From: Bacillota bacterium
GTDB lineage: Bacteria; Bacillota; Sulfobacillia; Sulfobacillales; Sulfobacillaceae
Direction of reading: 5' to 3'
Length of the DNA: 64,000 bases
NCBI GenBank assembly: GCA_021821465.1
Contig: JAKACM010000003.1
Location: 41,898-105,897 of the forward strand
Numbering within the stretch: the stretch's first letter is position 1; each line of letters opens with the position of its first letter. Below are positions 4,710-48,368 of this stretch, in pieces. The notes beneath the pieces are model-generated. The model was given only the letters and a program-made list of their open reading frames with translations, was not told where the DNA came from and ran no database searches. A program made the position numbers and the translations under genes.

Positions 4710-5459
4710 TTACGAGCGAAACAATCGCGAATATAAATCGCGGTGGCGCATTTGGGCCACCTCATAAAGAGGCATACCAGAGCCGATATCCTCCACCTGC
4801 AAATCCTTGATTTCCGTCAATACTTCCATAGTCCAACCATGCAGATCAAACAGCATTTTTTGAGACGATCTCTGCCCTAAAGGGACTAAGCGCACCAGCA
4901 CCTGAACCATCGCAGAGAGGGCCATGTAGGCCTGAGCTTGCATGCCCAGACCTTCCCCCCATTTCCGAATCACACCGATTACAGCCAACACTACCGCCTG
5001 ATTTCCGAGATGGGGAGCATGGCGGACGGCCTCTTGATATTTAGGCAGATCCGAATCCTGGAATAGCTCCGAGGCCGTGAGCAAAATACGCCGACCGATA
5101 TTCAAAGAACCCTGGCGACTTTCTTCGGACGCACGGCTCGCCGTCAAGTACCCGTCAATTTTCCGGACCTGAGTCCAAAAACTGACATCATGGGAAGCTC
5201 TATAAACCAGTTGGGCGGCCAAAGCGTCGGATCTCACCCAACTATGACGAACAATCGCGCGAATCCACTCCCGTGACGACAATTCATCCGTAATCCACTG
5301 TTCTTGAACGAGAGTTTCCAACCCGAACGAGTGAGTAAAAGCCCCTGAAGGAAACAAGCCGTCCACAAACTGAAATACTTCACCGTCCTGGGAATTGGCC
5401 ACAATCAAGAAGCCCTGTGAGGACGGTTTCTGGTGGCAAACCCCTGAGGTAACACGCAA
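4710..5459 (-). CDS. ureF: Urease accessory protein UreF
   Basis: '[25 protein letters not shown]' UreF signature; position between ureE and ureG. Confidence 0.93.
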
Positions 5460-5863
5460 TATTCTTCAACAACCAAGATGCCCAAGGATTGGGCGAGGTC
5501 CTTGAGAAAGGTTTCATTGGGGGTGAACACCTGTCCTTCCTTAACCCAGCAAGGTTGGTGCAAATTCCCGATATGATAACATAAGGTTCCCATCTCTTCG
5601 GGCGTCTTGGGCTGCATCACCAAAACTTTCTGGGCCTTCATCCGAGCTACAATGAAAATCTCTTGATCGGCATAGAGGATGTCTTGGTCAGCAAGTCCCG
5701 TATGGCGGGGCAAGTCTATCAGCACGACACGACCTTTGTCACTGAGAGTTTTCCACCGAGATCTCTGGCATTGATCACTATCCATATCCACCCATTCGAC
5801 GGCTTTGCCAAGGCTATCGCTTCCGAACGATCCCAAGACTCGATTCACTCTCACTGTATCCAT
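5405..5863 (-). CDS. ureE: Urease accessory protein UreE
   Basis: UreE-like 'CYHIGNLHQPCWVKEGQVFTPNE'; ORF is open further 5' but the likely start is ATG at 5863 (MDTVRVNRV). Confidence 0.88.
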   Translation of the reverse strand: MDTVRVNRVLGSFGSDSLGKAVEWVDMDSDQCQRSRWKTLSDKGRVVLIDLPRHTGLADQDILYADQEIFIVARMKAQKVLVMQPKTPEEMGTLCYHIGNLHQPCWVKEGQVFTPNETFLKDLAQSLGILVVEEYCVLPQGFATRNRPHRAS

Positions 5864-36034: not shown

Positions 36035-36766
36035 ATGTTTTATGTTTATGGAATTGTTCGCAAGAACACCATCCGTTCTCTTGAAGATTATCCGGGAATT
36101 GGCAAACCTTCATCGCGAGTCAAATCCATTACCGTCGATGCATACGACCTGATTGTGTCCGAAGTGGACCATTTGGAAAAACTGGATCCGGAAGATGTTG
36201 TTGCCCACTCGAATGTTCTTGATCAATTGTTCGCAGAATCCGAAGTGATCCCTGTTAAATTTGGTACCCTCTCCAAGGACCCCTCTGATTTGTCCTTGAT
36301 GATCCGCAACAATCGCGACAAACTTCGAGACACGTTCAAAAAGATTCAAGGGCGGATGGAAGTGGGTTTGAAAATCTATTGGCAGCAAGGCGCAGTACAG
36401 ACGAAAATACAGGAACGACTTGACGTGGCACGAGCCCGAAAAGAGTCTGGGCAAACAGGGGAAGGGTTTTACGCCTTGGAAATAAAAATCGGCCAAATTG
36501 CCCAAGAGATCGTGGAAGAATGGCGCGACGTGCTCATTCGTACGATCGATGGGATGATAACACCCTTGGCCGATGACGTGACAACGGGGAAACTGATTTC
36601 CGTTTATATGCTCTGCAACTTATCATTTCTGATAAAGCGAACCAAACGTGAGATTTTTCGCGATCAGATCTTCAAACTGGAAACCAAATTCGGACGGGAT
36701 TGTCAAATCAATTATGTCGACAATTTACCGCCGTTTAATTTCATCGATCTTAAGTTAGGGAGTTAA
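36035..36766 (+). CDS. Gas vesicle protein GvpF/GvpL (copy 1)
   Basis: 'FYVYGIVRKN...VIPVKFGTLSKDPSDL...EVGLKIYW...SFLIKRTKREIFRDQIFKLETKF' GvpL/F family. Confidence 0.9.
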   Translation: MFYVYGIVRKNTIRSLEDYPGIGKPSSRVKSITVDAYDLIVSEVDHLEKLDPEDVVAHSNVLDQLFAESEVIPVKFGTLSKDPSDLSLMIRNNRDKLRDTFKKIQGRMEVGLKIYWQQGAVQTKIQERLDVARARKESGQTGEGFYALEIKIGQIAQEIVEEWRDVLIRTIDGMITPLADDVTTGKLISVYMLCNLSFLIKRTKREIFRDQIFKLETKFGRDCQINYVDNLPPFNFIDLKLGS

Positions 36767-36770
36767 GAAC

Positions 36771-37040
36771 ATGGAAAATGTTAACTTGAGCTTTTGGGAT
36801 ATCCTCTTTCTCCCTATTTCCTTACCGATTAAATCAATAGGATGGACCATTGCCTACCTGCAAGATGAAGTGGAGAAAGAGAACCGCGGGTCAGAAGACA
36901 TGTGGTCGTCGTTGCTGGAGTTGGAAGTTCTACGAGACATTGGTAAAGTTTCCGACACAGAATATCAGATGCGTCGCAACCGATTACTCGTGCAAGCGGA
37001 AAATTTACCTGTGGCACAATTGACGGAGGATGAGGAATGA
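36771..37040 (+). CDS. gvpG: Gas vesicle protein GvpG
   Basis: 'LFLPISLPIKSIGWTIAYLQDEVEKE...LLELEVLRDIGKVSDTEYQMRRNRLL' GvpG pattern. Confidence 0.88.
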   Translation: MENVNLSFWDILFLPISLPIKSIGWTIAYLQDEVEKENRGSEDMWSSLLELEVLRDIGKVSDTEYQMRRNRLLVQAENLPVAQLTEDEE

Positions 37041-37297
37041 TGGACATCCGAACGGTTATTGAGACGGCAAGTCAACAAATTGGCACCATGGCCGGGCTTA
37101 AAATTGACCGGGTAGTGGGTTGTTCCCGGAGCGATCAAGGTTGGGTTCTGGAATGCGAGATCTTGGAGCGCCCGGCTATTCCCAACGCCATGGATGTGCT
37201 TGGATTGTACGAATTCGAGATTGATGTCAAAGGAAGCTTGCTACAATTTCACCGGAAAAGTTCCCGGCACCGGGGAGATGTGATTCCGGATATCTAA
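37037..37297 (+). CDS. gvpO: Gas vesicle protein GvpO
   Basis: 'GLKIDRVVGCSRSDQGWVLECEILERPAIPNAMDVLGLYEFEIDVKGSLLQFHR' GvpO pattern; ATGATGG overlap with gvpG. Confidence 0.88.
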   Translation: MMDIRTVIETASQQIGTMAGLKIDRVVGCSRSDQGWVLECEILERPAIPNAMDVLGLYEFEIDVKGSLLQFHRKSSRHRGDVIPDI

Positions 37298-37418
37298 TGA
37301 CAAGAAGATTGATGATCGGGGGTAAGGTTTACGACCCATAAACCAAGGAGACGGGTAAACTCGGCCGTCTTTTGAGTCGTAGGACCTGCTACCCAGTCCA
37401 AAACCCTTGGAGGGCAGA

Positions 37419-38192
37419 ATGAACCGACCGTTCTATTATTGGTACGCTGTAATTCCCAAGGACTCCCTCAATCCGGAACAATTCGCTCGGTCCTGCCAAT
37501 CCCGGTCCATCACCCCCGAAATATGGACATTTCGCAAATTATCAGCGGTGGTAACCCGGACAAAGATTTCCCGGGTTGTTTTAAATCGTGAGACAGCTTG
37601 GCAGCATGAACGAATCATCGAAATGATCTCAGATATCACTCATTATCAAACACTGCCTTTTCGGTTTGGTTCAGTGCATCCGGCAGAACAAGTCATGAAC
37701 ATATTGACCGAACGCCACGACGAGTGGCTAGATACCCTCGACGCGATAAAGGGACGGGTCGAAATGAGCCTTAAAGTTCTCTCTTCCCGATCTTCAGACA
37801 CTGCCTTAGGTATCCGGATTCCGTCTTCCTCATATCTGGATCGACTCATGCGGGAAAGATTACAGCAAAAAGCGAGGTTGAAGGAAGCTCAATCTATAGC
37901 GTTAGTCATTGACAAGCATCTGAAATCATCGTATGTTCGAAAATTTGAGGATGCCGAAGCCTTGCCAGGGATTTTAATCAATCAGACCTATCTTGTGGAG
38001 AAGGACCAAGTGCCAATGTTCCAAGACTCGGTCCGCACACTAATCCACGAATTCGGAACACGGAAATGGCTTTGTACCGGGCCATGGCCTCCGTATCATT
38101 TTGTCACGGACAGACCTAACCAAGAAGAGACAGACGGAAAGAAGGAGGAACCCAATGAGTTGGAAAAACGACCGCCCGGTCATTTCCAGTGA
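37419..38192 (+). CDS. Gas vesicle protein GvpF/GvpL (copy 2)
   Basis: 'FYYWYAVIPKD...LPFRFGSVHPAEQVM...RVEMSLKVLS...NQTYLVEKDQVPMFQDSVRTL'; RBS ggaggg. Confidence 0.88.
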   Translation: MNRPFYYWYAVIPKDSLNPEQFARSCQSRSITPEIWTFRKLSAVVTRTKISRVVLNRETAWQHERIIEMISDITHYQTLPFRFGSVHPAEQVMNILTERHDEWLDTLDAIKGRVEMSLKVLSSRSSDTALGIRIPSSSYLDRLMRERLQQKARLKEAQSIALVIDKHLKSSYVRKFEDAEALPGILINQTYLVEKDQVPMFQDSVRTLIHEFGTRKWLCTGPWPPYHFVTDRPNQEETDGKKEEPNELEKRPPGHFQ

Positions 38193-38505
38193 CGGGGAAG
38201 AGGCCATTCGCGATGTGCTTGCCGACATGATCGAACAAAAACCCATGGCAATGAATCTAGAGACAGGCAGGCCCGAACAAGGACTGGCCAAGCTGGTTCT
38301 AACCATCATCGAACTCCTTCGCCGCCTGTTGGAACAAGAGGCCTTGCGGCAGATTGAGTATGAACAATTGAGCGAGGAGCAAATCGAACGAGTGGGAAAT
38401 ACCTTCGCAAAACTCGACGCGCAGATGCATCAACTTCTGGAAGTGTTTGGACTGACAGAGCAAGATTTGAATCTCGATCTCGGCCCGTTAGGGACTCTAA
38501 TGTGA
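38155..38505 (+). CDS. gvpK: Gas vesicle protein GvpK
   Basis: 'ETGRPEQGLAKLVLTIIELLRRLLEQEALRQIEYEQLSEEQIERVGNTFAKLDAQMHQLLEVFGL' GvpK; ATG at 38155 after aaggagga. Confidence 0.95.
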   Translation: MSWKNDRPVISSDGEEAIRDVLADMIEQKPMAMNLETGRPEQGLAKLVLTIIELLRRLLEQEALRQIEYEQLSEEQIERVGNTFAKLDAQMHQLLEVFGLTEQDLNLDLGPLGTLM

Positions 38506-38506
38506 G

Positions 38507-38893
38507 GTGGACAAATTGGAGAACAAACCGCTCACCATGTCTCAAAGCACCAGTCTCGCCGATTTATTGGAACGGGTCCTGGACAAGGGGGTTGTCATTG
38601 CCGGAGACATCACCGTCTTGGTGGCCGATGTCGAGTTGCTGACCATCAAAATCCGTTTGCTGGTAGCTTCGGTTGACAAGGCCATGGAAATTGGCGTCAA
38701 TTGGTGGCAAAATGACCCATATTTAAATACGCGAGTCAAACAATTAGTCGAACATAATCGCGAGTTGGAACAAGAAGTGGCGGCATTGAGAAATGCTACT
38801 CTGCCAACCGTTGAGACAAGACTGGATGCCCTCGAAACCCAGTTGGAGAAAGCAAAGGCCAAAACCCCCAGAAAAAAGAGTGAGAAACCGTGA
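38507..38893 (+). CDS. GvpA-family minor protein (GvpJ/GvpS-like) with coiled-coil C-terminal extension
   Basis: 'SLADLLERVLDKGVVIAGDITVLVADVELLTIKIRLLVASVDKAMEIG' plus heptad-like Lys/Glu-rich tail. Confidence 0.9.
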   Translation: MDKLENKPLTMSQSTSLADLLERVLDKGVVIAGDITVLVADVELLTIKIRLLVASVDKAMEIGVNWWQNDPYLNTRVKQLVEHNRELEQEVAALRNATLPTVETRLDALETQLEKAKAKTPRKKSEKP

Positions 38894-39672
38894 AACCAAG
38901 AAGTTTATGGGCTTATGGCGTCGTGGCTAGGGGCGACGAACTCAAGCCCGAAAAGCCAGACATCAGCGGCGGAAAAGACTTTTTGTGGGTGCGAACGGCG
39001 ACTTTGTCCGCCTTAGCAAGTTACGTGCCTGATACCGAATATAATGAAGATACTTTAGCCAAACAACAGAATAATCCCCAATGGATTATAGACAAAGTTC
39101 AAGCTTGTGTCTCTGTTGTGGCCTTTATTTCTTCCCGCCGGGTGATCATTCCCTTTCGCTTTGGCTCGGTGTTTTCGACGGAACAGAGCCTGAAAGAGAA
39201 GTTGGATAGGCACAGCCATGTGTTCCATGAGTTGTTGCAACGCCTGGCAGGCACAGAAGAATGGGGCGTCAAAGTATTTGCTTCCGTCGCTTCCCAGGCA
39301 CAACAAATGGTCGAAGGAACCTTGGATCAAGCCGCGAAAAGCGGCATGAGTCCGGGCAGACGGTATATGCTGAAGAAACAGTTGCTGGTATCGGCTCTTT
39401 CAGATGCACAACGTGACTTAAAAGAAAAGGCCGACCTTATACATCGGTCGCTTGTGACGATGACCAGCGCCCATCAACCGGGCCGACCGGCAATTGAACC
39501 GCCCAACGCAGACAAATCCATCTGTTTGATGAAATCGTCGTACCTGGTGCCCAATTCCAACCTGAGTCAGTTTCTCGCTCAAATCGAGGATTTAACCGGC
39601 CGTTACGAAAACTTGCATATCCAAGTTTCCGGACCATGGGCACCATACAGTTTTTGTCACATGGATGTCTAA
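38890..39672 (+). CDS. Gas vesicle protein GvpF/GvpL (copy 3)
   Basis: 'LWAYGVVARGD...IPFRFGSVFSTEQSL...EWGVKVFAS...MKSSYLVPNSNLSQFLAQIEDL...GPWAPYSF'. Confidence 0.9.
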   Translation: MKPRSLWAYGVVARGDELKPEKPDISGGKDFLWVRTATLSALASYVPDTEYNEDTLAKQQNNPQWIIDKVQACVSVVAFISSRRVIIPFRFGSVFSTEQSLKEKLDRHSHVFHELLQRLAGTEEWGVKVFASVASQAQQMVEGTLDQAAKSGMSPGRRYMLKKQLLVSALSDAQRDLKEKADLIHRSLVTMTSAHQPGRPAIEPPNADKSICLMKSSYLVPNSNLSQFLAQIEDLTGRYENLHIQVSGPWAPYSFCHMDV

Positions 39673-42262: not shown

Positions 42263-42615
42263 TTTCGATGTGAGTAACAAAGCCGGATCTCCTTTGATCA
42301 ATATGCATGAGAAGATTTGCGCAGATCCCCATCATCGGTGCCTCCGGTTCAGAAGGCCGAAAATCGCTTTTCGGTGTCAACTGTCCCTGAATCGTCAGAT
42401 CGCGTGGTTAAAATGTCTGGGGATACACTGTGCACGAATGAGGAATTTAGAAAGGAACATCATGCAAAATGGCCGATTTGGCATGATGTTCCCATCATAT
42501 GCAAGAAGAACCGTTCGACAGGCCAAGCGCCTCCCGAAAGTCCAGAACATAGTCATGAATCTCGGCGCATAAGGAAAGGGAGAAAAAGCTCAAACATCCA
42601 CATTAGAAATCGGCG

Positions 42616-42659
42616 GGATCTTGACTGAAGGTCTTACGATATGTCTTCAGTCAAGATCC
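42616..42659 (-). terminator. Hairpin terminator downstream of panD-like gene
   Basis: GGATCTTGACTGAAG-N14-CTTCAGTCAAGATCC, 15-bp perfect stem. Confidence 0.7.
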
Positions 42660-42671
42660 GGCTCAACTCGT

Positions 42672-43061
42672 TCAGTCCGGCACACTGTGAAAAGCGGCTT
42701 CCTCCCGTACGACTTCGGTAATGTGGTTATCTTCATTGACAAAAACCACCGTGGGACGATGAGATGCCAATTCTTTTTGATCGTAGAGCCGAAATCCAAT
42801 GATGATAACCAGGTCGCCCGGATGAAACAGTCTGGCGGGCGGACCGTTGAGACAGATATCTCCTCCATGGGCTGGACCCGGAATGATATAGGTATGCCAT
42901 AATTCGCCATTGGATAAATTAGTTATTTGAACCATTTCATAAGGCAAGAGGCCGGTGGCATCCAGTAACTCTTGATCAATCGTAATCGAACCTACGTAAT
43001 TCAAATTGGCTTCCGTAACTCGAGCTCGATGAATCTTTGCAGCCATCATACGATATTGCAT
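42672..43061 (-). CDS. PanD-family pyruvoyl-dependent decarboxylase, divergent
   Basis: Retains 'AKIHRA', self-cleavage site 'NYVGSITID', 'HTYIIPG', 'ICLNG'; lacks the Arg aligned with E. coli PanD Arg54 (NGELWHTY versus NGxRxxTY). Confidence 0.85.
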   Translation of the reverse strand: MQYRMMAAKIHRARVTEANLNYVGSITIDQELLDATGLLPYEMVQITNLSNGELWHTYIIPGPAHGGDICLNGPPARLFHPGDLVIIIGFRLYDQKELASHRPTVVFVNEDNHITEVVREEAAFHSVPD

Positions 43062-43118
43062 CCGTATCTGCCCCTTTCTTCGCCCTCTATGGTAGCGTGA
43101 AACCTTCGCTCAGAAAAG

Positions 43119-44021
43119 TCATGAGTTCATCTCCACAACTTTCTTAATACCTTCTGCCACGTAGCGTGCAATAGCTAATTGACTGTCCTCAGTCAATCCG
43201 GCAATATGGGGCGTGCTGAAAACATTAGGCAAGGCTGACAGGAGGTCGCCCGTTTGGGGGGGTTCCGTCTCCCGCACATCCAAAATCGCCCCGCCCAACT
43301 TCTTCGTCTCCAGTGCTCGCAATAAATCCGGCTCATTAATTAATTCTCCCCGGGCAGTATTAATGATCAGGGAATGAGAATGCAGCAATCTTAGTGTGCT
43401 CTGATTTATGAGATGGTGCGTTTCATGGGATAAAGGCACGTGAAGACTAACGATATCCGCTCCCTTTAATGCCTCCTCTAAAGTACGAGTATTTCCGGGT
43501 GTGGCCGTCTTGGCATACGGATCGAAAATTTTCAGGACCATACCAAAGGCTTGAGCACGAAGAGCCACTGCTTGACCCGTGGCTCCATATCCAATCACTG
43601 CCAATGTTTTCCCTGCCAGTTCACCGCCCGACATGTCCCGGATCCACTGTCCTTGACGAACTTGCGATGTCATCCGGAGAAACCGGCGTTGAAAGGCAAT
43701 AGTCATACCGAGAACGTATTCTGCAACCGAAATAGCATTGGCCCCCTGCGGTACGATTAATTGCACCCCACTTTGTTGAAGCACCTCTTGATCAATGTTG
43801 TCGAGACCGACTCCGAGCCGTCCCACCGCTTGCACATAGGGTGCCCCGGCCATCAATTCAGCATTCACCTGAGTCTTATTGCGCACAATCAAACCCCGGG
43901 CCAATGCCACATGCGCAAACAAGGCGTCCGGGTTCCGGTACAGTTCGGGATCGTAATAAACTTCATGGGAAGACAGAATATCCAGAGCAATAGGGTGGAT
44001 CATTTCCGAAATCACTATCAT
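43119..44021 (-). CDS. D-isomer-specific 2-hydroxyacid dehydrogenase (candidate sulfolactate dehydrogenase)
   Basis: 'VIGYGATGQAVALRAQAFGMVLKIFDPYA', 'HETHHLINQSTLRLLHSHSLIINTARGELINEPDLLRAL'; 4-nt overlap with comA-like gene. Confidence 0.88.
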   Translation of the reverse strand: MIVISEMIHPIALDILSSHEVYYDPELYRNPDALFAHVALARGLIVRNKTQVNAELMAGAPYVQAVGRLGVGLDNIDQEVLQQSGVQLIVPQGANAISVAEYVLGMTIAFQRRFLRMTSQVRQGQWIRDMSGGELAGKTLAVIGYGATGQAVALRAQAFGMVLKIFDPYAKTATPGNTRTLEEALKGADIVSLHVPLSHETHHLINQSTLRLLHSHSLIINTARGELINEPDLLRALETKKLGGAILDVRETEPPQTGDLLSALPNVFSTPHIAGLTEDSQLAIARYVAEGIKKVVEMNS

Positions 44022-44815
44022 TTATCATTCCGTCCGAATCCAACATTCTCTTGATATGACAAACCGAGAGCATCCATGGTATCGTAGCGTAATCCCACCC
44101 GTAAGGCCTCCAGACTTAAGATATCCCCGTGATCAATATTGCCGAGATTGACATTGCTGCCGAATTCCCGGATAAAAAGAATTTGCTGAGATTCCAAAGG
44201 CGCCTCGAAGATCACTTCCTCGATAGGCAACACTTGCAGAACCGCGTTCATAATATGTACGTCTAAACTGCCATCCTGGCCATAAATCCCGCCTCGTCCG
44301 CTTCCTCTTCCTTCCAATATCACCTTATCTGCTCCGGCTTCCCGCAGTTTCAAGGCTTCATCAGCATAATTCTCGGCCGTCATTGACGACATATCGGATT
44401 TTTGCCCCACTTCTGCCATAACATGAAAATGGCGGTGCCGGGTAAAATCTTCGACCAGTGCGACTTTCTCATCTAAGGGAATAGGATAGCTTCCGGAGGA
44501 AATTTCTGCCCAGTTTAAGGCACTATGTTCGAGCAGCGCTCGGTATTCGTCAAGCTGCCCTTGGGCCCAATATGTTTCAAACAGCGTCCCGCCCAAAATC
44601 ACTTCAATGTCATGCGTTTTAAGCCAAGAAATTTTTTCATCCAGATTTTCAATAAGATACGCCGTTCCAATGCCCAGTTTGGCAAAATCCACATAACTCC
44701 CTGACATTTTGGCGATATCCATCCACACGTTGAGCCCTATACCTCGATCATTAACAACGGTCCACCCATATTCCCTGGGTTTGGAGGGGCGATATGGAAT
44801 GTGTAACACTCCCAT
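44018..44815 (-). CDS. comA: Phosphosulfolactate synthase (ComA family)
   Basis: 'SKPREYGWTVVNDRGIGLNVWMDIAKMSGSYVDFAKLGIGTAYL...VILGGTLFETYWAQGQLDEYRALLEHSALNWAEISSGSYPIPLDEKVALVEDF...VILEGRGSGRGGIYGQDG'. Start refined to MGVLHIP. Confidence 0.88.
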   Translation of the reverse strand: MGVLHIPYRPSKPREYGWTVVNDRGIGLNVWMDIAKMSGSYVDFAKLGIGTAYLIENLDEKISWLKTHDIEVILGGTLFETYWAQGQLDEYRALLEHSALNWAEISSGSYPIPLDEKVALVEDFTRHRHFHVMAEVGQKSDMSSMTAENYADEALKLREAGADKVILEGRGSGRGGIYGQDGSLDVHIMNAVLQVLPIEEVIFEAPLESQQILFIREFGSNVNLGNIDHGDILSLEALRVGLRYDTMDALGLSYQENVGFGRNDK

Positions 44816-45614
44816 GACTAAACACCTGCCATTTCCTCTAAAGTGTAGAGATTTCTTTGCCATCATGCCTTTTGCCATGGCTCTTCTAAGTATGATGGCG
44901 GCGTATATCGTGTTTTTCAACGGGATACTTTTGACCCCCATTCCACACAATTATGAAATGAGCCAGTCAAATCGGGAGAGGTGTTTCTTATTCAAGTTGT
45001 TGTCCGTAAATTCTGGTTAACCATATCACCCCGTTTTGCCCCCGTCAAAACCCCTAAGAAATCCGCACAGACCCAGAGGTGCATTGTCGTCCTCACATCT
45101 CAGATAAAAACTATTTTCCTCCCATTTTCTCCGTTCTCTTCACTTTTCATATCAAATGTCAATGGCCCAATATAATCTGTCGGATAGACACATATGAAGA
45201 ATTATTCGGGAATCGAAGCACTGTGACAGAAATGTTGATGAATGGTCTTCAGGTGTACAGCAAATGGTCCAATGACCATAAAATGCTCTGATCGTTTTGA
45301 CTCATCAACCTTTGAAAGAGTTTCCTCGCGTCAAATCTTTGCGTTATGGGACACAGGACTACCTCAATTAAGTTCTTAGCCAAGAGTGGCAGTCGGTGTC
45401 AAGGTCTTAATAATTCCCTGTGTTGCTCCACATTGTGTCGCTTTGATGTGACACGAACCGTTCTGATGGACTTATCCCAGTCTGATCATCGCTATGCCCA
45501 TGATCATCCTGTCGCCACCTTCCTGGTTCATCGCGCCACGACTTCTTAGGGTCTCAAGGACCGGTCGTCCACCGGAGGACGCTCCCCTAGGCGAGTCACC
45601 GAGCAGTCCTACCG

Positions 45615-46805
45615 TCAGGCAGGAACGGATGGGCAGCTAAAACCCATCGAACTCTCGGCCACTTTTCGCAAATTGATCGCCGCATTGATGTCGCGGTCAT
45701 GATGCGTGTGACATTCTGGGCACGTCCACTCCCGTACCGACAGCGACATTTTCGGGACACGATGCCCACAGGCGGAACACGTTTTGCTGCTGGGATACCA
45801 GCGGCTTACGACGATGACCGTCTTTCCCCGCTGAGCCGCCTTGTATTCCAACTGACGGCGAAATTCGCCAAAGCCCATGTCGGCAATCGCCCGGGCCAGC
45901 TTGTGGTTTTTAAGCATGCCCGCAACGTTCAGATCCTCGATGGCAATGACAGCGAAACGATCGACGAGATAGGTGGTCAGTTGGTGCAAAGCATCGGCCC
46001 GAATATTCGCAATCCGCGCATGAAGCCGAGCCATGCGCCGTTGAGTTTTCTGCATATTCTCCGACCAAGGGATGTGCATGCCTTTCGGAATGGGTTCGCC
46101 GGGCTTCAGCCCGGCACGCACTGTGGCAGCCTCCATCTGCCGACTGAAGTGTTGTGATAACTGGCGGAGTTTCTTCAACGCCGCGGCATAGGCTTTCGGC
46201 CCCACAAATTTCTCACCGGTGGAGATCGTCGCCCACGCCGAAATCCCTAAGTCCACACCACCCACCGTTTGGTTTTCACGGAGGATATGGGGAGGATCGG
46301 GAATCTCAACGGTGACACTCAAAAACCAGCGGTCAGCGGTTCGGGAGATCGTGCCATCCAGCACTTTCCCGACAAAGCGTAACGCTTCGTGCATTCGAAC
46401 CCAGCCGAGCTTAGGGATGTGGATTTTCTTGCCTTTGAGCGTAAATTGGTCGTTGGTCAGCGTAAAGCTGTCGTGTTGGCCCTTTTTCTTAAACTTAGGG
46501 TACTCCGAGATACCGGCAAAGAAATTCTTAAACGCTTGGCCCAAGTTCTTGATGGCCATCTGCGGAGCGTTCTTGGTAACCGCTAGCATCCACGGGAACT
46601 CTTGGCGCTTGATCGCATTCAGTTGACGCCGCAAGGCGGCGTCGGAAGGCGTGTGCCCAGCGGGATCGGCTTTCCACGCATCATATTGCCGCTGCCACTC
46701 GGACAAGGCCCAGTTATAGGCAAAACGGGCCGTTCCCGCTGCCTTGCGAAAGTACGTCTCCTGCACATCATTGGGATCGAGTGCAATCTTGTGGGCGAGA
46801 ATCAT
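45615..46805 (-). CDS. tnpB: TnpB RNA-guided endonuclease-family protein
   Basis: RuvC residues 'GGVDLGISAWATIS', 'AIEDLNVAGM', 'HDRDINAAINL' and zinc ribbon 'CSACGHRVPKMSLSVREWTCPECHTH'; uninterrupted 396 aa. Confidence 0.95.
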   Translation of the reverse strand: MILAHKIALDPNDVQETYFRKAAGTARFAYNWALSEWQRQYDAWKADPAGHTPSDAALRRQLNAIKRQEFPWMLAVTKNAPQMAIKNLGQAFKNFFAGISEYPKFKKKGQHDSFTLTNDQFTLKGKKIHIPKLGWVRMHEALRFVGKVLDGTISRTADRWFLSVTVEIPDPPHILRENQTVGGVDLGISAWATISTGEKFVGPKAYAAALKKLRQLSQHFSRQMEAATVRAGLKPGEPIPKGMHIPWSENMQKTQRRMARLHARIANIRADALHQLTTYLVDRFAVIAIEDLNVAGMLKNHKLARAIADMGFGEFRRQLEYKAAQRGKTVIVVSRWYPSSKTCSACGHRVPKMSLSVREWTCPECHTHHDRDINAAINLRKVAESSMGFSCPSVPA

Positions 46806-47042
46806 GACGACGCCTCCTCCACGGCGTGTTTCACGCCGTCTAACAATTTTTGGTTCTGGCGAGAACGGCTGCCATAGAGCCGAGCTGAAAACACGGTGAT
46901 GATTTCGAGGACGTCTTGCGCGAACTCTTCCTCAAATGTCGTGTCTATTCCTGGGTTGAGAATCACGACTGCCACATTTTTGGCCTCGCCAATCGCGAAC
47001 ACCCGGTCCGCGCCAAAGCGCAATAAACGGTCCTGGTGCGTG

Positions 47043-47075
47043 ATGACGAGCCGACCGATCCGGTCGGCTCGTCAT
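47043..47075. repeat. Perfect hairpin, 15-bp arms and 3-nt loop
   Basis: ATGACGAGCCGACCG-atc-CGGTCGGCTCGTCAT, inside tnpA at the frameshift. Confidence 0.95.
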
Positions 47076-47249
47076 GGAGGAGTTTTTTGAGTCCCTTTTT
47101 GTGATAGTGCATCCCGGACCCGAGATCGGCCACACTCTCGAAGGTCCATCCTTGACGGGCACAATACAGCTCCCACACCTGCTTTTGTCGGTCTCGATCG
47201 TCTTTTGGGTCGTGACGCGACACACGGGCGTATGCCACGGTTTTGCGAG

Positions 47250-47281
47250 GCGACCTGAGCCGGTGAAACGGCTCAGGTCGC
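47250..47281. repeat. Perfect hairpin, 13-bp arms and 6-nt loop
   Basis: GCGACCTGAGCCG-gtgaaa-CGGCTCAGGTCGC, inside tnpA. Confidence 0.95.
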
Positions 47282-48368
47282 AACCGGGCCCAGTCGTAAC
47301 GCCGATACCCACCCGCCGTGCGGTCATCCGGTACCAGCTTGCCTCCATGCTCCCATCGGCGTCATGTCGATGGGGTGACTCCCAAAAATTCTGCAGCTTC
47401 TCGAATACCAACAAGTTTTCGATTCATCGCTAAATTATACAATAATGGGTAACCATAGGTAAACTTTTAGCAAACTGTTAAAACCCCTTTTACCAAAAAC
47501 ATTGTCGGAAAAATGATGGCAGTGCTTGGACTCGGATTAAACGGGTGATAAATCAACGGCTCATCTTTGGCCACCGAGTAGAGAAAGGATGAGAGTTCTT
47601 CTTCAAAATAAAGAGATTTCCGCCGATATTTCAATACACTTGCCGTGTCATTAACGTAGTAATGCAAGACGGCCGGGAATCCAATGAAGACCTAGCTCAA
47701 AGGAAGTCTCTTCCTTCATCTCGTGCTATCAATTCTATACTTATTTAGGCAGGAGTCTTTAGGGGCGATTCGCGAATCGTTGGGGAACTGCTCGGGTTTC
47801 CACAGGCAGGCGGTTTTCCCGGCGATTCTTCTCATCGGATTTTCAAGGCGATGGCACGGAATAAACACCGACTTATACGTCTGGATCACCGGGTCGGCGA
47901 TTCTCCATTCCTTGGGAACACCCTGCCCGTCGTGTGTCTCGTGATTGCGTTTAAGGGGAGCACTGTAGGCTTCCTTCGATATAGAAGATATTCGGATTCG
48001 ACGTAACTTGAAATAACCTACATGATAATCAAGAAATGGCCCCTTAGAACAGCCTATGTCTAGCGAAGTGGGCGGCCTTAGGCCATGCTTCCATTGCGCC
48101 TTCCATTCATTACAGCCATTTTCTCCTAAAACTGTATAGGAAAAGCATGACGCTGTCACACTGATGAAAACCCTGAATATGATGTGGATGAAGTTAGTCA
48201 ACAGGAGGTGTTCACGTAGAAGGCAACTTCCCGACATGACTGTCATCTGCCGTCGTTCATTTGATTGACTGTTACGGGTTCCATTTTGCTCAAACCGAGG
48301 CGATGAAGAAGCCCCAGGCACAGATCACAGTGACCCTACCATAGCCGTAAAACAAGGAGGAATCCCCA

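What the first reader, a model, noticed from the sequence alone, without database searches (positions are those of the whole stretch)
42672..44815. ComA + 2-hydroxyacid dehydrogenase + divergent PanD operon: possible new sulfonate (sulfolactate/cysteate/taurine or CoM-like) pathway
Seen: minus-strand order comA, dehydrogenase (4-nt overlap), panD-like (57-nt gap), then a strong terminator. Established: ComA makes (R)-phosphosulfolactate from PEP and sulfite; D-2-hydroxyacid dehydrogenases include (S)-sulfolactate dehydrogenase (SlcC); PanD decarboxylates aspartate. Inference: the pyruvoyl enzyme may act on a sulfonated analogue such as L-cysteate. No ComB phosphatase or aminotransferase is visible nearby.
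Basis: partly seen in the sequence, partly recalled or inferred. Interest (0 to 1): 0.8.

Follow-up and report, generated by a model that had tools for sequence, protein, structure and literature searches.

The report
Possible sulfonate operon joined to panD
In acid-mine Sulfobacillus bacteria, two genes that resemble enzymes for making and oxidising the sulfur compound sulfolactate share an operon with the gene that makes the vitamin precursor beta-alanine; the sulfonate link gains indirect support, but the vitamin gene most likely keeps its ordinary job.

Summary
In detail: comA-like, D-2-hydroxyacid dehydrogenase (DH) and panD genes lie head to tail on the minus strand of a Sulfobacillus-family genome. 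The trio recurs in 7 of 34 family genomes from four genera (one with an interrupted comA); close relatives of this comA were found only in this family. For: the DH's closest family paralogues lie inside suyA-suyB-slcC-comC sulfolactate clusters. In relatives, a histidine phosphatase precedes comA2/DH, a candidate for the missing phosphatase; here it is gone, and an IS607-like element lies in that interval. In one relative an aminotransferase precedes phosphatase-DH. Against: this ComA is a second, divergent copy, with five charged or polar positions on its catalytic face changed; every family genome also has a canonical ComA. ComA's known product is (R)-sulfolactate, but SlcC-type DHs take (S). 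PanD is the only PanD in a genome with PanB, PanC and PanE, so it most likely makes beta-alanine. Its loss of substrate Arg54 is shared by all 41 family PanDs, with or without the cluster. Best reading: a family-specific C3-sulfonate side module (phosphatase-ComA2-SlcC-like DH) riding with housekeeping panD. Taurine synthesis is possible but unproven.

The parts
44018..44815 (-). comA2: second, divergent ComA-family (phosphosulfolactate synthase-like) TIM-barrel protein, 265 aa from ATG 44815 (ORF opens at TTG 44950)
   Evidence: PF02679 237 bits; TIGR03849 218.9, below its cut-off of 280; own clade with 100/100 support; AlphaFold model closest to 1qwg and 1u83
43119..44021 (-). D-2-hydroxyacid dehydrogenase, 300 aa, SERA/SlcC-like, overlaps comA2 by 4 nt
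   Evidence: PF02826 + PF00389; keeps IVRN and GRLGVGLDN arginines and the catalytic R/E/H; closest family paralogues lie in suyAB-slcC-comC clusters
42672..43061 (-). panD: pyruvoyl aspartate 1-decarboxylase family, 129 aa; Gly24-Ser25 cleavage site, Lys9, Thr57 and Tyr58 kept, Arg54 replaced by Leu, Ala74-Ala75 replaced by Pro-Pro
   Evidence: TIGR00223 138 bits above cut-off 106; only PanD in the genome; alignments
42615..42662 (-). hairpin after panD, perfect 15-bp stem, no T run
   Evidence: RNA fold -31.6 kcal/mol for 42600-42675; not found by the terminator pattern
45206..48153 (.). interval that replaces the histidine-phosphatase gene of relatives; holds an IS607-like element (TnpB 45615-46805 minus; resolvase-like frames 46802-47414)
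   Evidence: DNA similarity to L031 stops at 45205 and resumes at 48154; in L031 the matching interval (4989-5838) holds most of the phosphatase gene at 4946-5527; no phosphatase remnant in the window

Best explanation
The locus carries a family-specific module for three-carbon sulfonates in the same operon as the housekeeping panD. In its fuller form (relatives) the module is histidine phosphatase + ComA2 + SlcC-like dehydrogenase. Inferred flow: ComA2 adds sulfite, or a related nucleophile, to phosphoenolpyruvate; the phosphatase removes the phosphate; the dehydrogenase interconverts sulfolactate and sulfopyruvate. PanD forms its pyruvoyl group by normal Gly-Ser cleavage and most likely still decarboxylates aspartate to beta-alanine for pantothenate. 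Shown by sequence: gene families, order, conservation, losses, co-occurrence, residue changes. Inferred: every substrate and the direction of flow. In the window's own strain the linked phosphatase is gone, so that step, if it still runs, is done by another enzyme.
For: Trio conserved across four genera. A histidine phosphatase precedes comA2 or DH in 8 loci. Phosphatase and DH orthologues co-occur: both in 10 genomes, DH alone in 1 (own), phosphatase alone in 0, neither in 23 (genomes are not independent). DH's closest family paralogues sit in suyA-suyB-slcC-comC-gntR clusters, as do Methylobacterium and Paracoccus homologues next to UxaA-family, Ldh-family and sulfate/sulfite-exporter genes. 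Sulfolactate metabolism is widespread here: canonical ComA in 34/34 genomes, beside ComB in most of those inspected, and a suyAB cluster in the own genome. PanD is the sole PanD with PanB, PanC and PanE present.
Against: ComA2 has changed positions that are the same or conservative in M. jannaschii ComA, B. subtilis YitD and the other family ComAs, including Glu171 to Ala/Gly and Lys209 to Glu, so it may not make phosphosulfolactate. ComA's known product is (R), SlcC takes (S). Four genus members (G016-G019) have phosphatase and DH without an intact ComA2. The DH is not placed inside any SlcC clade; deeper forks are unresolved. No substrate is shown for any of the enzymes.
Confidence: 0.45

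Rival explanations
1. One reading: ComA2, phosphatase, DH and an aminotransferase make L-cysteate, and the PanD-like enzyme decarboxylates it to taurine.
For: All steps have a candidate gene; in G019 an aminotransferase (class I, aspartate-aminotransferase-like profiles) directly precedes phosphatase and DH. G026, G030 and G031 carry a cluster-linked PanD besides other PanDs. Cysteate binds PanD, as an inhibitor of the M. tuberculosis enzyme (PMC3461031).
Against: Sole PanD in the own genome with PanB/C/E present. Arg54, which binds the beta-carboxylate, is lost, which disfavours a sulfonate as much as aspartate. PanDs without the cluster have the same pocket. In G016 and G019 DH and PanD are apart. 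Stereochemistry mismatch.
Confidence: 0.15
2. ComA2 and DH act on a substrate that is not a sulfonate; ComA2 is a repurposed barrel and the DH a SERA-type enzyme for 3-phosphoglycerate or another anionic 2-hydroxyacid, with the phosphatase as partner (for example serine metabolism).
For: Catalytic-face changes in ComA2; best PDB match of the DH is phosphoglycerate dehydrogenase 1wwk; the phosphatase has sub-threshold matches to phosphoserine phosphatase and alpha-ribazole phosphatase models; phosphatase-DH persists without ComA2.
Against: The genome has a separate ~525-aa SerA-like gene that falls in another clade; the DH is closer to the SlcC-type paralogues than to SerA.
Confidence: 0.25
3. 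Mere neighbours: panD acquired upstream genes by rearrangement, and the operon has no joint function.
For: Standalone PanD loci have many different neighbours; comA2 or DH is lost or broken in several genomes.
Against: DH-panD adjacency kept in 9 of 11 DH genomes across four genera with DH down to 46% identity; 4-nt overlap of comA and DH.
Confidence: 0.12

Closest known systems
ComA / YitD phosphosulfolactate synthase (archaeal coenzyme M pathway; Bacillus spore sulfolactate)
   Same: Family, TIM barrel fold, most strand-end residues including Lys43, Glu103, Glu133, Lys137, Glu168, Arg170, Glu205 and Asn224
   Different: Own deep clade; Lys21 to Arg, Asp/Asn106 to Ser/Ala, position 136 variable, Glu171 to Ala/Gly, Lys209 to Glu; below the TIGR03849 cut-off; next to a dehydrogenase and panD, not ComB
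SlcC, (S)-sulfolactate dehydrogenase (SERA-like 2-hydroxyacid dehydrogenase)
   Same: Family, length, catalytic R/E/H, anion-binding arginines; closest family paralogues sit beside suyAB and comC
   Different: Separate 11-member clade linked to phosphatase, ComA2 and PanD rather than to sulfolactate lyase; deeper placement unresolved
PanD, pyruvoyl-dependent L-aspartate 1-decarboxylase
   Same: TIGR00223 above cut-off, Gly24-Ser25 cleavage site, Lys9, Thr57, Tyr58, Asn72
   Different: Arg54 to Leu and Ala74-Ala75 to Pro-Pro; Arg54 is absent from all 41 PanDs of the family and present in all 38 outside it
ComB phosphosulfolactate phosphatase
   Same: The proposed phosphatase step
   Different: The linked gene in relatives is a histidine phosphatase (PF00300), not PF04029; a ComA-ComB pair exists elsewhere in the own genome
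Bacterial coenzyme M synthesis (Xanthobacter XcbB1-E1; recalled, not tested here)
   Same: Starts with a ComA homologue
   Different: No later Xcb-type gene was noticed beside this comA2; not searched for by sequence

Membership tests
ComA (phosphosulfolactate synthase) | ComA family profile and TIM-barrel fold | tested here: met
   PF02679 237 bits; closest folds 1qwg TM 0.74 and 1u83 TM 0.70
ComA (phosphosulfolactate synthase) | NCBIfam equivalog TIGR03849 cut-off (an archaeal model) | tested here: not met
   218.9 bits against 280
ComA (phosphosulfolactate synthase) | Strand-end residues kept in archaeal, YitD-type and canonical family ComAs | tested here: not met
   Glu171, Lys209 and Asp/Asn106 changed in the full-length ComA2 proteins
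ComA (phosphosulfolactate synthase) | PEP + sulfite to (R)-phosphosulfolactate | not testable with these tools
   needs enzyme assay
PanD aspartate 1-decarboxylase | TIGR00223 equivalog score | tested here: met
   138.4 bits against 106
PanD aspartate 1-decarboxylase | Gly-Ser self-cleavage site and Lys9, Thr57, Tyr58 | tested here: met
   alignment
PanD aspartate 1-decarboxylase | Arg54, salt bridge to the substrate beta-carboxylate (PMC3461031) | tested here: not met
   Leu in the window; 0 of 41 in the family, 38 of 38 outside
PanD aspartate 1-decarboxylase | Pantothenate partners PanB, PanC and PanE in the genome | tested here: met
   G000 C179 (PanB, PanE) and C103 (PanC)
PanD aspartate 1-decarboxylase | Decarboxylation of L-aspartate | not testable with these tools
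   needs enzyme assay
SlcC (S)-sulfolactate dehydrogenase | 2HADH family with catalytic R/E/H and SERA anion-binding Arg | tested here: met
   motif role from PMC6303947
SlcC (S)-sulfolactate dehydrogenase | Clustered with suyAB and comC | tested here: not met
   not at this locus; true for its family paralogues
SlcC (S)-sulfolactate dehydrogenase | Placed inside the SlcC clade | tested here: inconclusive
   own 100/100 clade among SlcC-type groups, deeper forks weak
Phosphosulfolactate phosphatase beside comA | Linked phosphatase gene | tested here: not met
   absent in the window; histidine phosphatase PF00300 in relatives

The most novel reading that the evidence does not exclude
The cluster (histidine phosphatase, ComA2, SlcC-like dehydrogenase, an aminotransferase and a pyruvoyl decarboxylase that lacks the aspartate-binding arginine) makes taurine or a related sulfonated amine from PEP and sulfite, a bacterial route that uses a pyruvoyl-dependent cysteate decarboxylase.
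Probability: 0.15. Interest if true: 0.75.

Novelty: new variant of a known kind. Interest (0 to 1): 0.45.

Why it matters
Sulfolactate is a major spore component in Bacillus subtilis (PMC517825), and taurine is reported as an abundant solute in acid mine drainage, put down there to eukaryotes (PMC4378227). A second ComA system tied to an SlcC-like dehydrogenase would add a new bacterial branch of C3-sulfonate metabolism and could make Sulfobacillus a candidate source of such compounds. Separately, a whole bacterial family whose PanDs lack the arginine held to fix substrate specificity, while at least one member has no other PanD, makes it directly testable whether Arg54 is really required.

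Tried and rejected
DH as ketopantoate reductase for the panD operon: rejected as unnecessary, PanE lies next to PanB in the own genome. DH as the serine-pathway SerA: unlikely, a separate ~525-aa SerA-like gene exists. A PanP-type PLP aspartate decarboxylase as the beta-alanine source: the one PF00282 match in the own genome was not itself scanned; its counterparts in G017 and G025 score as glutamate decarboxylase, far below the PanP cut-off. Other beta-alanine routes (such as pyrimidine breakdown) were not searched. Loss of Arg54 as a sign of a cluster-specific sulfonate substrate: rejected, it is family-wide. Glycerol-operon neighbours of some PanDs: not linked to the trio. A ComA2 fold from 7 sequences (pLDDT 76) gave fold and strand ends only, no substrate information. 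Rfam search: nothing. Literature searches found no description of this operon. The genome-contig scan used two tight peptide patterns, so more distant ComA2 relatives could be missed.

Full report
Observation. The window lies in a 4.96-Mb genome of 199 contigs; its relatives include Sulfobacillus benefaciens. On the minus strand are a ComA-family gene (44018-44815/44950), a D-2-hydroxyacid dehydrogenase (43119-44021) and a PanD (42672-43061), with a 4-nt overlap and a 57-nt gap. Downstream is a perfect 15-bp hairpin without a T run.

Conservation. The trio recurs in L031 and L032 (same genus) and in L036, L039, L044 and L048 (other genera of the family); in L039 comA is split over two frames. 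L041 keeps comA-panD without DH; L033 and L034 keep phosphatase-DH-panD without comA. Broken comA2 remnants occur in G008 and, beside a transposase upstream of the DH, in G016. A scan of 85,462 genomes found this ComA type in 7 loci, titled Sulfobacillus or Bacillota MAGs and matching contigs of the family genomes by length; the own genome's records may have been left out.

A missing piece. In eight related loci a histidine-phosphatase gene (PF00300) lies directly upstream of comA2 or DH. In the window it is absent: similarity to L031 breaks at 45205 and resumes at 48154, and an IS607-like element occupies the interval. In the family the phosphatase and this DH type co-occur in 10 genomes, DH alone occurs in the own genome, phosphatase alone in none (Fisher p about 8e-8, without correction for relatedness). 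In G019 phosphatase-DH sits behind an aminotransferase and away from panD. The core pair is therefore phosphatase + DH, with ComA2 and PanD as frequent partners.

ComA2. All 34 family genomes carry a canonical ComA, next to a ComB (PF04029) in most of those inspected, the own genome included. The window ComA is a second copy that forms its own 100/100 clade (the truncated L039 row has a very long branch). It keeps Lys43, Glu103, Glu133, Lys137, Glu168, Arg170, Glu205 and Asn224 (M. jannaschii numbering) but has lost Glu171 (Ala/Gly), Lys209 (Glu) and Asp/Asn106 (Ser/Ala), with Lys21 to Arg and position 136 variable (the broken row L039 is set aside). In an AlphaFold model (pLDDT 76) these positions lie at the C-terminal ends of barrel strands, the usual catalytic face of such barrels (the catalytic role is general knowledge). 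Activity as phosphosulfolactate synthase is therefore plausible but not certain. The archaeal reference sequence was entered from memory and agrees, but for one residue, with the chain printed over the aligned part.

Dehydrogenase. It keeps the arginines that bind the anionic group in SERA enzymes and the catalytic triad (PMC6303947). Its closest family paralogues (about 41-47% identical) lie in clusters of suyA-like, suyB-like, dehydrogenase, comC-like (best model L-sulfolactate dehydrogenase, 246.6 bits, below its cut-off of 500) and gntR genes in several family genomes, the own genome included, where that slcC copy is truncated. Proteobacterial homologues share such neighbourhoods, and Paracoccus SlcC/ComC/SuyAB clusters are described in PMC12421959. 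In a tree the window-type DH is one 100/100 clade among SlcC-type groups and apart from SerA; deeper forks are weak. But ComA makes the (R) form (PMC5695019), whereas SlcC acts on (S) (PMC6303947 and PMC12421959), so the simple chain does not close unless ComA2 differs or a second dehydrogenase helps.

PanD. The family has two PanD clades. All 41 family PanDs lack Arg54; all 38 PanDs compared from outside have it (the E. coli and B. subtilis references were entered from memory). Arg54 is described as the salt bridge to the beta-carboxylate of aspartate, and L-cysteate as an inhibitor of the M. tuberculosis enzyme (PMC3461031). Since PanDs without ComA2 or DH share the change, it is no sign of a cluster-specific substrate. 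The own genome has only this PanD, with PanB and PanE adjacent on C179 and PanC on C103. The sole PF00282 decarboxylase match of the own genome was not scanned itself; counterparts in G017 and G025 are glutamate decarboxylases by profile. The simplest reading is that PanD makes beta-alanine in spite of the missing arginine. In G026, G030 and G031 the cluster-linked PanD comes on top of other PanDs, which leaves room for a cluster role. In the PanD tree cluster-linked and standalone copies are intermixed, with weak support.

Verdict. A real, conserved, family-restricted operon; a C3-sulfonate role for phosphatase-ComA2-DH is the best single reading (0.45), a non-sulfonate role is a serious rival (0.25), and the full taurine pathway is possible (0.15) but lacks direct support.

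Noticed in passing
G000:C68:46001-62000 (locus L252): The window's own genome has a sulfolactate catabolic cluster (SSS transporter, suyA, suyB, slcC, comC, gntR) in which slcC lacks its N-terminal third and has only a short open frame; the window DH could stand in for it.
   Followed up: partly
All 41 family PanD sequences (window and loci L031-L070): Family-wide loss of PanD Arg54, with Leu/Met/Phe/Trp in one clade and His in the other; Ala74-Ala75 become Pro-Pro in the first clade.
   Followed up: yes
L110-L118 (G005, G026, G023, G021, G025, G012, G011, G027, G028): A third ComA group, grouped with B. subtilis YitD (93/90), in several family genomes; a SurE-like phosphatase gene lies near it in several of these loci.
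   Followed up: partly
Loci L054-L070 (second PanD clade): The second PanD clade has its own conserved neighbours, including an MFS-transporter-like protein of about 397 aa in 15 loci.
   Followed up: no
window 45615-47414: IS607-like element with TnpB in the interval where relatives keep the histidine phosphatase.
   Followed up: partly
window 36035-39672: Gas vesicle genes (a GvpL/GvpF-family match at 38890-39672 and similar frames before it) in a Sulfobacillus-family genome, before the trio.
   Followed up: no
G008:C35:46935-47150: Decayed comA2 remnant with an internal stop next to panD, a sign of repeated loss of comA2.
   Followed up: partly
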